Below the pieces are notes generated by a model that saw only the letters and a program-made list of their open reading frames with translations, did no database searches and was not told where the DNA came from. A stretch of 21,565 nt of DNA, from IMG/VR virus record IMGVR_UViG_3300030329_001111, positions 1 through 21,565 of that record; one strand, written 5' to 3'. The position numbers and the translations under genes are program-made. This document shows, in pieces, positions 2,258 through 7,943 of this stretch (its first letter is position 1; every line of letters begins with the position of its first letter). This stretch comes from a virus.

Positions 2258-2301
2258 TTTTTTATCCTTCGCCTTGCGGCTTATGTCAGCACCATTACTG
2301 A
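2258..2301 (-). promoter_or_regulatory. Structured leader of zinc-ribbon gene (leader family B, copy 1)
   Basis: On the minus strand the leader has TCAGTAATGGTGCTGA (2286-2301), then GCCGCAAGGC, then GAAGGATAAAAAA and ATG. The first element can fold with TCAG pairing CTGA. The second is a GCC/GGC stem with a GCAA tetraloop just before the ribosome-binding site. The same layout precedes the gene starting at 2520. A role in translation control is inferred. Confidence 0.6.
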
Positions 2302-2304
2302 AAT

Positions 2305-2328
2305 GCACGCACTCCGAAGAATGCGTGC
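2305..2328 (-). promoter_or_regulatory. Ten-bp UUCG tetraloop hairpin between two small genes
   Basis: The minus strand reads GCACGCATTC, TTCG, GAGTGCGTGC. In RNA this is a ten-base-pair stem with one U-G wobble closed by the very stable C(UUCG)G loop. No U-run follows, so it may be a stability or processing hairpin rather than a classical terminator. Confidence 0.75.
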
Positions 2329-2349
2329 GATTCAAAAATGGTTAGTTCA

Positions 2350-2520
2350 TTAGCAACCTGTTTGCATGTTGTCCAAACTGATTGCATGGTCTAATGCCCT
2401 GAGCAATGCGCGTTCAAGTTGTTCTTTTTTGCGCTGTTCTTTCCTGTTGCTTGTTTGCACCTGATCAAGTTTGAAGTAGTAAGCATTTTTTAGGGCTTCT
2501 CTGATTTCATTTATAGTCAT
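2350..2520 (-). CDS. Small basic helical protein, 56 residues
   Basis: A short gene starting MTINEIREALKNAYYFKLDQ and ending DNMQTGC. It is mostly helical, with a strongly charged centre containing RKEQRKKEQLER. No family is recognised. It is supported by a good GAAGGATAAAAA ribosome-binding site, by its position as first gene after the promoter candidate at 2573, and by a leader shared with the next gene. The highly charged helix could bind nucleic acid or protein; this is only a possibility. Confidence 0.65.
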   Translation of the reverse strand: MTINEIREALKNAYYFKLDQVQTSNRKEQRKKEQLERALLRALDHAISLDNMQTGC

Positions 2521-2565
2521 TTTTTATCCTTCGGCATTCGCCACTGTGATCAGCACCATTGCTGA
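2521..2565 (-). promoter_or_regulatory. Structured leader of 56-residue gene (leader family B, copy 2)
   Basis: The minus strand has TCAGCAATGGTGCTGA (2550-2565), which folds with TCAGCA pairing TGCTGA, then a GGC-GAAT-GCC stem, then GAAGGATAAAAA and ATG. It matches the leader at 2258-2301 in 15 of 16 bases of the first hairpin. The second stem has the opposite base-pair order (GGC/GCC here, GCC/GGC there) but is still paired. Confidence 0.6.
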
Positions 2566-2572
2566 CCTGTGT

Positions 2573-2603
2573 AAGATAACAGGATCGGCACATCTTTGGA
2601 CAA
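2573..2603 (-). promoter_or_regulatory. Probable sigma-70-like promoter for the leftmost operon
   Basis: The minus strand has an extended -10, TGTTATCTT, with TATCTT at 2573-2578. A weak -35 TTGTCC lies at 2598-2603 with 19-base spacing. It lies just upstream of the structured leader of the 56-residue gene. The extended -10 is the stronger part; the long spacing lowers confidence. Confidence 0.5.
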
Positions 2604-2606
2604 CTC

Positions 2607-2623
2607 TTGACAACGAATGTCAA
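2607..2623. promoter_or_regulatory. Operator-like inverted repeat TTGACA-N5-TGTCAA
   Basis: A perfect six-base inverted repeat separated by ACGAA lies immediately upstream of the promoter candidate. Related TTGTC half-sites occur on both sides on the minus strand. This is a typical layout for a dimeric phage regulator, but no regulator gene is visible in this window. Confidence 0.45.
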
Positions 2624-2776
2624 AAAAAGACAAGAAAAAACGACCTCAAAATATAGGGCTAGGATCGCATTTCTGGCGTTTGATTTTCAGATGACTACTC
2701 ACCCACCTAAGCGGCTCAAATGGACTGTGCGGGATTCTAGGGCTTCTCAAGCGAAATGGGGCATCGTTCACATGCG

Positions 2777-2804
2777 TCTTTGATAGTTGAATACTGTGCT
2801 GTTC
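2777..2804 (+). repeat. Inverted-repeat pair 1, arm downstream of gene 2815-3099
   Basis: This 28-base arm matches the reverse complement of 3118-3145 at 26 positions, with two adjacent mismatches. The 17-base core is TGAATACTGTGCTGTTC. It lies ten bases past the stop codon of the gene it helps enclose. Confidence 0.9.
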
Positions 2805-2814
2805 GGTTCAGTGT

Positions 2815-3099
2815 TTAATCAGTCCAATTCTTGAGTGTAGGTGGCAAATCTTTAACCGCATCTTGCAATGAATCAAAACGATTTTCGCGGTCATCAAATT
2901 CCCAACCAACAACTTCAAACTTGCCATCTGGCAACAATTTGATTTCTTCTTCATTTCGTGCCAAATTTGATGACCACCATACATAGATATATCTTTGTTG
3001 TTGGCGGCTGTAATACAAACCATTTGTATCTGTGCGACACCATCCAAGTTTTTCTAACCTGTCAGGTTGTTTGCTGAATCTTTTCAATTTTTCGTTCAT
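2815..3099 (-). CDS. Hypothetical protein in inverted-repeat-enclosed cassette 1
   Basis: Not recognised. The 94-residue product starts MNEKLKRFSKQPDRLEKLGW and contains GLYYSRQQQRYIYVWW and GKFEVVGWEFDD, suggesting a small beta-rich domain with many aromatics. The frame is open up to 3135. The start at 3099 is chosen because AGAAAGAAGGATATTTTT precedes it and because the upstream part is a duplicated leader whose two copies differ by a single-base gap, so it is not coding. The gene is enclosed by the 28-base inverted repeat pair 2777-2804 and 3118-3145. Only its first few residues (MNEK) resemble the neighbouring cassette gene. Confidence 0.75.
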   Translation of the reverse strand: MNEKLKRFSKQPDRLEKLGWCRTDTNGLYYSRQQQRYIYVWWSSNLARNEEEIKLLPDGKFEVVGWEFDDRENRFDSLQDAVKDLPPTLKNWTD

Positions 3100-3145
3100 A
3101 AAAATATCCTTCTTTCTGAACAGCACAGTATTCACTTATCAAAGA
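3100..3145 (-). promoter_or_regulatory. Leader family A, copy 1, with inverted-repeat arm
   Basis: On the minus strand this is the 28-base arm (3118-3145) followed by AGAAAGAAGGATATTTTT and ATG. It is nearly the same as the leader of the upstream gene (3528-3571), including the first codons ATGAACGAAAA. A strong ribosome-binding site is clear; no -10 box is convincing inside it. Confidence 0.75.
3118..3145 (-). repeat. Inverted-repeat pair 1, arm upstream of gene 2815-3099
   Basis: Partner of 2777-2804: 9 plus 17 paired bases with two mismatches between them. It lies within the gene's leader, ahead of the ribosome-binding site. Confidence 0.9.
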
Positions 3146-3160
3146 ACTATTGCAACTTGG

Positions 3161-3180
3161 CAACTGAAGATGTGCTGTCC
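3161..3180 (+). repeat. Inverted-repeat pair 2, arm downstream of gene 3192-3527
   Basis: The 20 bases CAACTGAAGATGTGCTGTCC match the reverse complement of 3546-3565 at 18 positions, including 14 in a row. One of the two differences is a G-U pair in RNA. The arm lies 11 bases past the stop codon. Confidence 0.9.
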
Positions 3181-3191
3181 AATCTGATTGT

Positions 3192-3527
3192 TTAGTCGAG
3201 TAAGAAAGTTGAACCGGAATCTATTTTGCTAGATTCTGATTTGTACAACTCTTTGGTTGAAGTTGTGTATTTCTTGGTTGCCCTTTTTCGTAAATCGAAT
3301 ACAGGGAAATACTTTGAAAACTCTTTTTCACCTTCTGCTTTGTTCATCATGACACGACCAAGACCATCTACCCATGTTGGGCAAGGTGGTTCGATCGCAT
3401 AAACAATGCAATCCTTAAAATCAACAGAGAAGATCTGTTTTATTTCATCGATGGTGTCGCCAGCCGCCCAAGTGTGTTGAGCGATCGCCAAGAACCTTCG
3501 ATTCTTTTTTTCAATCTTTTCGTTCAT
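3192..3527 (-). CDS. Hypothetical protein in inverted-repeat-enclosed cassette 2
   Basis: Not recognised. The 111-residue product starts MNEKIEKKNRRFLAIAQHTW. It has a central VYAIEPPCPTWVDGLGRVM and a Lys/Ser/Thr-rich end (KRATKKYTTSTKELYKSESSK). There is no signal peptide or metal motif. The start at 3527 is set by GAAGGATATTCAT upstream. It is the first gene after the promoter at 3610 and is probably the first translated gene of that transcript. It is enclosed by its own inverted repeats (3161-3180 and 3546-3565), which differ from those of the next gene. Confidence 0.75.
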   Translation of the reverse strand: MNEKIEKKNRRFLAIAQHTWAAGDTIDEIKQIFSVDFKDCIVYAIEPPCPTWVDGLGRVMMNKAEGEKEFSKYFPVFDLRKRATKKYTTSTKELYKSESSKIDSGSTFLLD

Positions 3528-3571
3528 ATGAATATCCTTCTTTCTGAACAGCACATCTTCACTTGTCAAAG
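3528..3571 (-). promoter_or_regulatory. Leader family A, copy 2, with inverted-repeat arm
   Basis: The minus strand begins CTTTGACAAGTGAAGATGTG, continues CTGTTCAGAAAGAAGGATAT and then reaches ATGAACGAAAA. It aligns with 3100-3145 across its whole length apart from a few substitutions and a one-base gap. It contains the arm 3546-3565. Confidence 0.75.
3546..3565 (-). repeat. Inverted-repeat pair 2, arm upstream of gene 3192-3527
   Basis: Partner of 3161-3180. It lies between the 5' hairpin and the ribosome-binding site of the first gene of the early transcript. Confidence 0.9.
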
Positions 3572-3577
3572 AGCGAT

Positions 3578-3603
3578 ATGGAGAAACTTTTTTCTATCTC
3601 CAT
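3578..3603 (-). promoter_or_regulatory. Hairpin at predicted transcript 5' end
   Basis: ATGGAGA and TCTCCAT form a perfect seven-base inverted repeat with a 12-base loop. The -10 box ends at 3610, so the transcript should start at or next to the first arm. It could be a 5'-end stabilising hairpin or an operator over the start site. Confidence 0.6.
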
Positions 3604-3609
3604 GTGCGT

Positions 3610-3638
3610 ATTATACCAGAAGCAAAAATTGCTTTCAA
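3610..3638 (-). promoter_or_regulatory. Near-consensus sigma-70 promoter
   Basis: On the minus strand TTGAAA (3633-3638), a 17-base spacer and TATAAT (3610-3615). The TGG before the -10 makes it an extended -10, and an A/T-rich stretch upstream could act as an UP element. The spacer contains AAGCAATTTTTGCTT, an inverted repeat that could be an operator. It points at the two cassette genes. Confidence 0.85.
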
Positions 3639-6552: not shown

Positions 6553-7943
6553 GATATTGAAAATCCTATGTTGTCAAGGTAATCTGAAGCAGGAGTGATA
6601 TGATGTGGATTGATGATTTTCATCCAATTATCACTGCCACATTGAGTGTTGTATTCAAAATACCGATAGCCACCAACACCATGACTTGGGTCTGCGCCTG
6701 TTGGTGGAACAGTCGCAGGGTCAAACGGATTCCAATGTGCATTGCTTTGCGTCAATCCCGCAGGACAACCGCAACCATCTTGGCGAATGTACCAATTGTG
6801 AGTGCCACCACCAACAAAAGAACATGATGTGTATGTGCTTGAATCGTTTTCACATACTTGCGAACTCTCATCTGGTGATTCACATTGCAAACAATAACCA
6901 CACCTTATTCCATCAACGCAAGTTGTTCTTTTAATGTACTCCACAATGGCAACCCGCCAAACTGCGCAAGGTGCAGGTGTGCAACAATCATATGGAATGT
7001 TACCACCCCCACCACAAGGGTAGTTTACTTGACTCACAATCTGTGAAACTTCAACTCTGTAGTACCAAGACAACAACTTATATGCACCACACACAGGGCA
7101 ACCAAAATTGCATGGCAAACATTCACAGTCATCGCAAGGATTTTCTTCGGGGCAACTACCGCATGAAGCGTATGGCATTACTTGATTCAAATACCCACCA
7201 AACACTTTTTCACTTGACTTCCATTTGCCAGACACAGGATCAAAAGTCAGTGTTGTTGTGTGCGACCTTCCACTGAGCGTTCCATTCGTGGTGCAATAGC
7301 CATCTTCAATGTAACCTGAAGTCGACTTCAACACTGCATCGGGAAATGAAACCGTCATTGAATAAGTCGATGCACAACCTGACACCGTTTCAGGATCGCC
7401 ACAAACTGACACTTGACCTGATTCATCTCGACAAACGCCTTTGAAGTTTTGACAACCATCTTCTGTTGGACAGGGATTTGGAAAGCATGTTGTTCCTGCG
7501 CCAATCCATTTCGAGTCTGCGCCATATGCCATACATTCATCGAATGTTTTGTTTGCAAAGCAACTTGTTCCACGACTACCAACAACACAACACGCACCTG
7601 TTTCCTGTTCACAAACTTCACAATCATCGGCTCGTGGATATACTTGAATCGGTGTTCCCGCTTGATTTTCTGTAATTGAATATATGATGACACCGCTGAC
7701 ATCTGCAATGTTGTATCGGTTTGAAATGTCGTCTGTCGAACTTGTCACTTCCAAGCAACAGTATTCATTGAATAGGATGATATATGGTGGTGAGTTTGGC
7801 TGTTTCAATACCCAATCAAGTGCGGCTTCTGACAAGTACACATCATCAGGACACTTTGTCGAGTCTTCGCATGGTTCAACTTTATAGCAATAACCACTGT
7901 TTTCTACACAACAACACTTTCTTGATTTGCTTCCAATTTTCAT
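6549..7943 (-). CDS. Large cysteine-rich tail protein
   Basis: The 464-residue product has about 42 cysteines, near 9 percent. They include CCC at the start, a dense CGSCPEENPCDDCECLPC stretch, and a GACC...C...T...C...W.G.GTTC....CP module at about residues 116-159. That module resembles short disulfide repeats I associate with secreted proteins of Planctomycetota and related marine bacteria. There is no signal peptide. ATG at 7943 overlaps the upstream stop as ATGA and is preferred to GTG at 7949. It lies in the tail-tip block and is probably a virion surface protein stabilised by disulfides or metal. The exact role is unknown. Confidence 0.75.
   Translation of the reverse strand: MKIGSKSRKCCCVENSGYCYKVEPCEDSTKCPDDVYLSEAALDWVLKQPNSPPYIILFNEYCCLEVTSSTDDISNRYNIADVSGVIIYSITENQAGTPIQVYPRADDCEVCEQETGACCVVGSRGTSCFANKTFDECMAYGADSKWIGAGTTCFPNPCPTEDGCQNFKGVCRDESGQVSVCGDPETVSGCASTYSMTVSFPDAVLKSTSGYIEDGYCTTNGTLSGRSHTTTLTFDPVSGKWKSSEKVFGGYLNQVMPYASCGSCPEENPCDDCECLPCNFGCPVCGAYKLLSWYYRVEVSQIVSQVNYPCGGGGNIPYDCCTPAPCAVWRVAIVEYIKRTTCVDGIRCGYCLQCESPDESSQVCENDSSTYTSCSFVGGGTHNWYIRQDGCGCPAGLTQSNAHWNPFDPATVPPTGADPSHGVGGYRYFEYNTQCGSDNWMKIINPHHITPASDYLDNIGFSIS

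What the first reader, a model, noticed from the sequence alone, without database searches (positions are those of the whole stretch)
2777..3565. Two adjacent small genes, each enclosed by its own matched pair of inverted repeats
Seen directly: gene 2815-3099 lies between 28-base arms (26 paired), and gene 3192-3527 lies between 20-base arms (18 matched, one more as G-U). The two pairs are related but differ in the middle (GAATACTGTGC against GAAGATGTGC), and each arm matches its own partner better than the arms of the other gene. The change was therefore made on both sides of each gene. Leaders, first codons (ATGAACGAAAA) and stop regions (TAAACA) are shared while the proteins are unrelated after MNEK. 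Inference: each is a unit, either a tiny mobile cassette with terminal inverted repeats, an mRNA whose two ends pair, or an invertible segment. I know of no named system with this layout; the closest idea is the promoter/stem-loop cassettes of T4-like phages.
Basis: partly seen in the sequence, partly recalled or inferred. Interest (0 to 1): 0.8.

Follow-up and report, generated by a model that had tools for sequence, protein, structure and literature searches.

The report
Phage mRNAs built like rRNA precursors
Two small genes of this phage each lie inside an RNA helix formed by the two ends of their own message and starting at the boxA signal of ribosomal RNA operons; unrelated phages, some infecting E. 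coli, wrap other small genes the same way, so phages seem to have borrowed the layout of ribosomal RNA precursors for messenger RNA.

Summary
Both genes (minus strand) are bracketed by matched arms: 26/28 bp, and 22 WC + 1 GU in 25 bp. The 5' arm is not an arbitrary repeat. It starts at an rRNA-operon boxA (CGCTCTTTGACAAGTGAA) behind a sigma70-like promoter match and a 5' hairpin. The same motif lies before 16S and 23S genes, and in the five 16S loci I could test it opens the 16S leader-trailer helix.

Four related phage contigs carry eight further units around unrelated small ORFs. Across the ten units 11 of 26 base pairs show double compensatory changes (0/500 shuffles); own-partner pairing beats every other assignment. 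Non-WC pairs beyond boxA are GU 15 : AC 2, favouring pairing in the mRNA. In 902 phage genes, strong 5'/3' arms occur in 14/21 boxA leaders against 6/881 others, and those six look boxA-like too. Unrelated phages, including E. coli Kuraviruses, share the plan; one jumbo-phage pair brackets tRNAs.

Best reading: an rRNA-like, Nus-tethered leader-trailer helix giving end-protected or individually processed mRNAs. Helix and boxA are well supported; Nus and RNase III involvement is inferred. TIR, inversion and convergent-promoter readings are disfavoured.

The parts
3610..3638 (-). sigma70-like promoter match TTGAAA-17-TATAAT with TG before the -10
   Evidence: consensus scan, 11 of 12; about 300 nt of promoter and leader 80-85% identical in L010, L011 and L053
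3578..3603 (-). 5' hairpin ATGGAGA...TCTCCAT at the expected 5' end of the RNA, placed like boxB of rrn leaders
   Evidence: sequence and fold; a hairpin with different stem sequence at the same place in L010, L011, L053, L032
3564..3575 (-). boxA of unit 2, CGCTCTTTGACA
   Evidence: the same motif precedes 16S and 23S genes in bacteria
3545..3578 (-). 5' (leader) arm of unit 2, overlapping boxA
3192..3527 (-). small gene of unit 2, 111 aa, no detected homologue
3148..3181 (-). 3' (trailer) arm of unit 2, directly before boxA of unit 1
3137..3147 (-). boxA-like sequence of unit 1, GTTCTTTGATA
   Evidence: sequence; homologous to the boxA of the other units
3118..3145 (-). 5' (leader) arm of unit 1
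   Evidence: 26 of 28 paired; paired in the predicted fold (z -5.2)
2815..3099 (-). small gene of unit 1, 94 aa, no detected homologue
2777..2804 (-). 3' (trailer) arm of unit 1

Best explanation
Each unit is a messenger RNA built on the plan of a ribosomal RNA precursor. Host RNA polymerase starts at a strong promoter; the nascent RNA shows a 5' hairpin and a boxA. By analogy with rrn operons, NusB/S10 bind boxA and keep the leader tied to the elongating polymerase, so that when the trailer arm emerges after the stop codon it pairs with the tethered leader arm. The leader-trailer helix (about 17-28 bp in this family) closes the message just outside the ribosome-binding site and the stop codon. 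The likely payoff is an end-protected or individually processed (RNase III-type) stable mRNA for each small, probably early gene, with processive transcription through consecutive units. Shown here: promoter match, boxA identity with rrn boxA, helix by covariation, modular units, recurrence in unrelated phages. Inferred: Nus binding, tethering, RNase III cleavage, mRNA stability, early timing.
For: boxA identity and 16S leader-trailer geometry in bacteria; 11 of 26 pairs with double compensatory changes, 0/500 shuffles; own-partner assignment best of 5040 for 7 units, and 0 of 200,000 for 17 units; GU 15 vs AC 2 beyond boxA; arms in 14/21 boxA-led genes vs 6/881 others, the six being boxA-like too; unrelated phages incl. 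E. coli Kuraviruses; tRNA cluster bracketed in L023/L045; folds of both units z -5.2 and -6.1. Published model of boxA tethering and leader-trailer pairing: PMC4807359, PMC10250234.
Against: All evidence is sequence. Nus binding, RNase III cutting and stability are untested. Some boxA sites in phages have no arms, so boxA can act without a helix. The ten family units share ancestry, so changes are not all independent events. Only one of four 23S loci gave significant arms. The host is unknown.
Confidence: 0.7

Rival explanations
1. Fold-back control of translation, as in hok-type toxin mRNAs: the 5'-3' helix keeps the message silent until the 3' end is trimmed.
For: Long-range 5'-3' closure of a small gene; such mRNAs are known from plasmid and phage toxin loci (own knowledge).
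Against: In the window family the ribosome-binding site lies outside the helix (arm end to ATG 15-18 nt); no antisense promoter was found over the genes; the proteins show no toxin-family match; boxA is unexplained.
Confidence: 0.1
2. Antitermination only: boxA acts as a nut-like site; the arms are incidental or act as small hairpin spacers.
For: boxA-like sites without arms exist in phages such as SPO1.
Against: Arms track boxA and covary across units.
Confidence: 0.08
3. DNA-level cassette: terminal inverted repeats of a tiny mobile element, or an invertible segment.
For: Units are gained and lost, with unrelated ORFs between conserved ends.
Against: Arms differ between neighbouring units of one phage; boxA always on the 5' side; conserved A.C mismatch at boxA (9 of 10 units); GU rather than AC mismatches beyond boxA; no flipped unit seen.
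Confidence: 0.04
4. Convergent promoters or operators in inverted orientation around the gene.
For: TTGACA occurs in boxA; in L208/L209 the same motif is followed by a -10 (TTGACA-17-TAAGAT) and its inverted copy closes what looks like an Fst-type type I toxin locus.
Against: No -10 hexamer follows TTGACA at 16-18 nt in the window units, and the scan finds none there on the minus strand. Neighbouring arms differ, which does not fit one repressor.
Confidence: 0.03

Closest known systems
Bacterial rRNA operon: boxB-boxA leader and 16S/23S leader-trailer helices (PMC10250234, PMC4807359)
   Same: promoter, hairpin, boxA, 5' arm, RNA body, 3' arm, repeated for consecutive RNAs; boxA at or next to the start of the helix, as in the Phycisphaerales 16S locus L092
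   Different: the body is a protein-coding ORF (or tRNAs in L023/L045), not rRNA; found in phages; processing untested
boxA sites outside rRNA operons (suhB and a Citrobacter ParE-like toxin gene, PMC5725501)
   Same: boxA in the leader of a protein gene
   Different: no matched trailer arm described there; in suhB boxA represses
lambda nut sites
   Same: boxA in a phage leader, with a hairpin nearby
   Different: hairpin precedes boxA here; no N-like protein recognised; helix spans the gene
hok/sok-type and Fst-type type I toxin loci
   Same: small genes with long-range or inverted repeat structure
   Different: RBS free here, no antisense promoter found, no toxin match; in Fst-like L208/L209 the repeats look like convergent promoters
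T4 early promoter/stem-loop cassettes (from memory; not found in PMC2988022)
   Same: modular repeated control elements around variable small phage genes
   Different: local hairpins, not a helix spanning a gene; no boxA

Membership tests
rrn-type boxA leader | boxA sequence (Y)GCTCTTTRACA near the 5' end of the transcript | tested here: met
   unit 2 CGCTCTTTGACA; the same motif precedes 16S and 23S genes. Unit 1 is a weaker match (GTTCTTTGATA)
rrn-type leader-trailer helix | complementary sequences on both sides of the RNA body | tested here: met
   positive control on 16S loci
rrn-type leader-trailer helix | cleavage by RNase III | not testable with these tools
   needs RNA end mapping in rnc strains
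Nus-factor antitermination complex | NusB/S10 bound to boxA and to the elongating polymerase | not testable with these tools
   needs ChIP, CLIP or in vitro binding
rRNA operon | encodes rRNA | tested here: not met
   ORFs in the body; no Rfam match at gathering threshold
lambda nut site | boxA followed by boxB hairpin plus phage N protein | tested here: inconclusive
   hairpin precedes boxA as in rrn, rather than following it; an N-like protein cannot be recognised by sequence and was not searched for
Type I toxin-antitoxin (hok, Fst) | toxin ORF plus antisense RNA from a convergent or internal promoter | tested here: not met
   no plus-strand promoter match over the genes other than a weak 9/12 one at 2767-2795, within shuffle expectation; no toxin-family match
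Mobile element with terminal inverted repeats | same ends in all copies, movement or target-site duplication | tested here: inconclusive
   ends differ between units; operon absent in L007; borders not examined for target-site duplication

The most novel reading that the evidence does not exclude
Many phages of distant hosts use a general 'pre-rRNA mimic' expression module: boxA-tethered, helix-closed, separately processed mRNAs, a distinct class of bacterial message that exploits the host ribosome-synthesis transcription machinery during takeover.
Probability: 0.5. Interest if true: 0.93.

Novelty: new variant of a known kind. Interest (0 to 1): 0.86.

Why it matters
Leader-trailer helices with boxA are known as the way bacteria fold and cut ribosomal RNA. 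Finding the same plan around protein genes in unrelated phages would mean that phages feed their messages into the ribosomal RNA production line, and would give a natural system in which to ask what boxA tethering does independently of the ribosome. E. coli Kuraviruses (for example Bas86, Bas88) carry one such unit around a 66-aa ORF, followed by further boxA sites in a non-coding stretch, so the question can be tested in the laboratory.

Tried and rejected
Protein searches for homologues of the two genes gave nothing. Exact searches for the window arm and leader found nothing in IMG/VR. Rfam has no match at gathering threshold in the 16 sources searched. Convergent promoters considered and rejected for the window; L208/L209 set aside as Fst-like loci. 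The L007 inverted repeat 9833-9862/10124-10153 was not pursued: no boxA and it appears to lie within coding sequence. SPO1, RHEph21, Leuconostoc vL_291, the APSE-2 strain tested and Streptococcus IPP61 (Tn916 region) have boxA-like sites but no significant arms. Repeated boxA sites in Phycisphaerae genomes have no significant arms. 23S arms: one of four loci significant. L079 (Lachnospiraceae MAG) scores as a unit, but its arms enclose more than one gene and an internal terminator-like hairpin, so it is not counted. Literature searches for phage boxA, leader-trailer helix and related terms found no description of this arrangement (open-access library only).

Full report
WHAT WAS CLAIMED AND CHECKED. 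The window is the whole of a 21,565-base virus record: a tailed-phage fragment with terminase, portal, capsid, an exonuclease VIII-like protein and a phosphoesterase, all on the minus strand. The two small genes are minus-strand ORFs. Gene 2815-3099 is bracketed by 28-nt arms, 26 paired; gene 3192-3527 by a 25-bp core with 22 WC and 1 GU pairs, extendable to 34 nt. Both are far beyond chance (z 11.4 and 9.0, 0/60 shuffles each), and among 37 testable ORFs of the window they score 22 and 18 against a next best of 10. Swapping partners within the window drops the pairing scores from 22 and 18 to 10 and 10.

WHAT THE ARMS ARE. Read on the transcribed strand the order is: promoter match TTGAAA-17-TATAAT with TG extension (3638-3610); a hairpin at the expected 5' end (3603-3578); CGCTCTTTGACAAGTGAA; arm; AGAAAGAAGGATATT; ATG. 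CGCTCTTTGACA is a boxA, the NusB/S10 site of ribosomal RNA operons. In the five 16S loci where both ends are available, a stretch starting 2-25 nt into that motif pairs with the region after the 16S (0/100 shuffles in each). In the Phycisphaerales locus L092 the helix begins inside boxA (TCTTTGACAAGTGAATAGTCGG / CCGACTATTCATCTGTCAAAGA), the same geometry as the phage units.

RELATIVES. Using the phosphoesterase I found related contigs. L010 (three units) and L011 (two), and by boxA pattern L053 (two) and L032 (one) have a similar promoter, hairpin, boxA and arm, but enclose ORFs with no detected similarity to the window's or to each other. About 300 nt of promoter and leader are 80-85% identical between window, L010, L011 and L053; beyond the leader the similarity is confined to short stretches around the arms. 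The closest relative found, L007 (phosphoesterase 91% identical, DNA 75-80% identical over long stretches), lacks the whole promoter-plus-two-unit operon: about 1.2 kb in the window corresponds to 0.14 kb there. The slot is therefore optional and its contents are exchanged.

COVARIATION. On the ten units: 90.7% of cells form standard pairs, 11 of 26 pairs change on both sides, 0/500 shuffles reach any of the measures, and sliding the partner by 1-3 columns reduces pairing to 32-44%. For seven non-redundant units the true assignment of 3' arms to 5' arms is the single best of 5040; for 17 units none of 200,000 random assignments reaches it. Non-WC pairs beyond boxA are GU 15, AC 2 on the coding strand (p 0.002; over the whole helix GU 21, AC 9, p 0.04), which is expected for RNA pairing on that strand and not for DNA repeats. 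Within boxA there is a conserved mismatch (9 of 10 units), which suggests that boxA and the trailer each keep their own sequence. The units are different genes of related phages, so the changes are not all independent events.

GENERALITY. Two boxA pattern scans of IMG/VR and BLAST searches of annotated phages with boxA-like queries brought in unrelated phages. Arms with shuffle p of 0.01 or below surround the first ORF behind boxA in L024/L040, L030/L048, L046, L197, L200, L202 and L190/L194/L198, and a longer region in Streptococcus phages MissE1 and Javan326. L023/L045, from contigs of 224 and 184 kb, have boxA plus arms around part of a tRNA-rich region. A scan of 902 ORFs in all these phage loci found arms of score >=15 in 14 of 21 genes with a strict boxA leader (one of them the Fst-like L209) and 6 of 881 others, and I read boxA-like sequences in the leaders of those six. 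Two of the six are the same gene in E. coli phages Bas86 and PAS59: GCTCTTTAATAATTCGATTAGTGTATCTTGATAAACT / AGTTTATCAAGATGCATTAATCGAA around a 66-aa ORF, preceded by hairpin-forming sequence. Further boxA sites in that non-coding stretch have short arms, one with a compensated change (ATCATCT/AGATGAT against ATCGTCT/AGACGAT), but their shuffle p values are mostly above 0.02.

MECHANISM. [quoted passage not shown] By analogy the phage leader would be held until the trailer appears after the stop codon, closing the message. In the window family the helix ends 15-18 nt before the ATG, leaving the ribosome-binding site outside it, and restarts 10-23 nt after the stop codon. I infer that the result is a processed or end-protected mRNA. 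Nus binding, RNase III cutting and stability are not shown.

RIVALS. DNA cassettes or inversion: no flipped unit, arms unit-specific, GU bias. Convergent promoters: no -10 in the arms; L208/L209 look like that. hok-like fold-back: RBS outside the helix, no antisense promoter found, no toxin-family match. Antitermination alone: possible for leaders without arms, but arms and boxA go together.

LIMITS. Everything is sequence. The pattern searches chose boxA, so the 902-gene scan is not a random sample, though its controls are the other genes of the same loci. The host of the window phage is unknown. The literature library is open access only, so novelty is 'not found', not 'absent'.

NOVELTY. 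Every element is known from rRNA operons; their use around small protein genes in unrelated phages was not found described in the literature searched. I call it a new variant of a known kind.

Noticed in passing
window 2270-2600 (-); L007 9300-10080: A second repeated leader before other small genes: a hairpin (CGCACGCATTCTTCGGAGTGCGTGC) and TCAGCAATGGTGCTGA followed by a GGCGAATGCC / AAGGATA stretch, present several times; possibly another cassette leader.
   Followed up: no
window 2590-2630 (-): Palindrome TTGACATTCGTTGTCAA just upstream of the next gene group, possibly an operator overlapping a second promoter.
   Followed up: no
L010 1850-1900, 2320-2355; L011 2018-2050: Hairpin GNCTAGGGTATTYGTTCTAGNC after some trailer arms, with matching changes on both sides of its stem.
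   Followed up: no
L212 1700-3000 (Bas86), same region in L222-L230: E. coli Kuraviruses have a long non-coding stretch with several promoter-like and boxA sites in tandem, each with short possible arms; candidate small RNAs.
   Followed up: partly
L023, reverse strand 7070-7900: Jumbo-phage contig (224 kb) with boxA and matched arms around part of a tRNA-rich region.
   Followed up: partly
L069, L071, L072, L084, L085, L086, L096, L098, L113, L124: Phycisphaerae genomes carry a repeated element, GAGAGTGCGTGTGTTCCCCGCC plus boxA, many times away from rRNA genes and without arms; function unknown.
   Followed up: partly
L209 2000-2650 (Streptococcus phage Javan576), L208 3689-4600: boxA-like sequence that is really a promoter -35; inverted copies close what look like Fst-type type I toxin loci.
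   Followed up: partly
L218 1801-1820 (Streptococcus phage IPP61, Tn916 region): A perfect Firmicutes-type boxA TGTTCTTTGAAAACTGAATA lies between a Tn916 ORF and xis, a possible antitermination site of the element.
   Followed up: no
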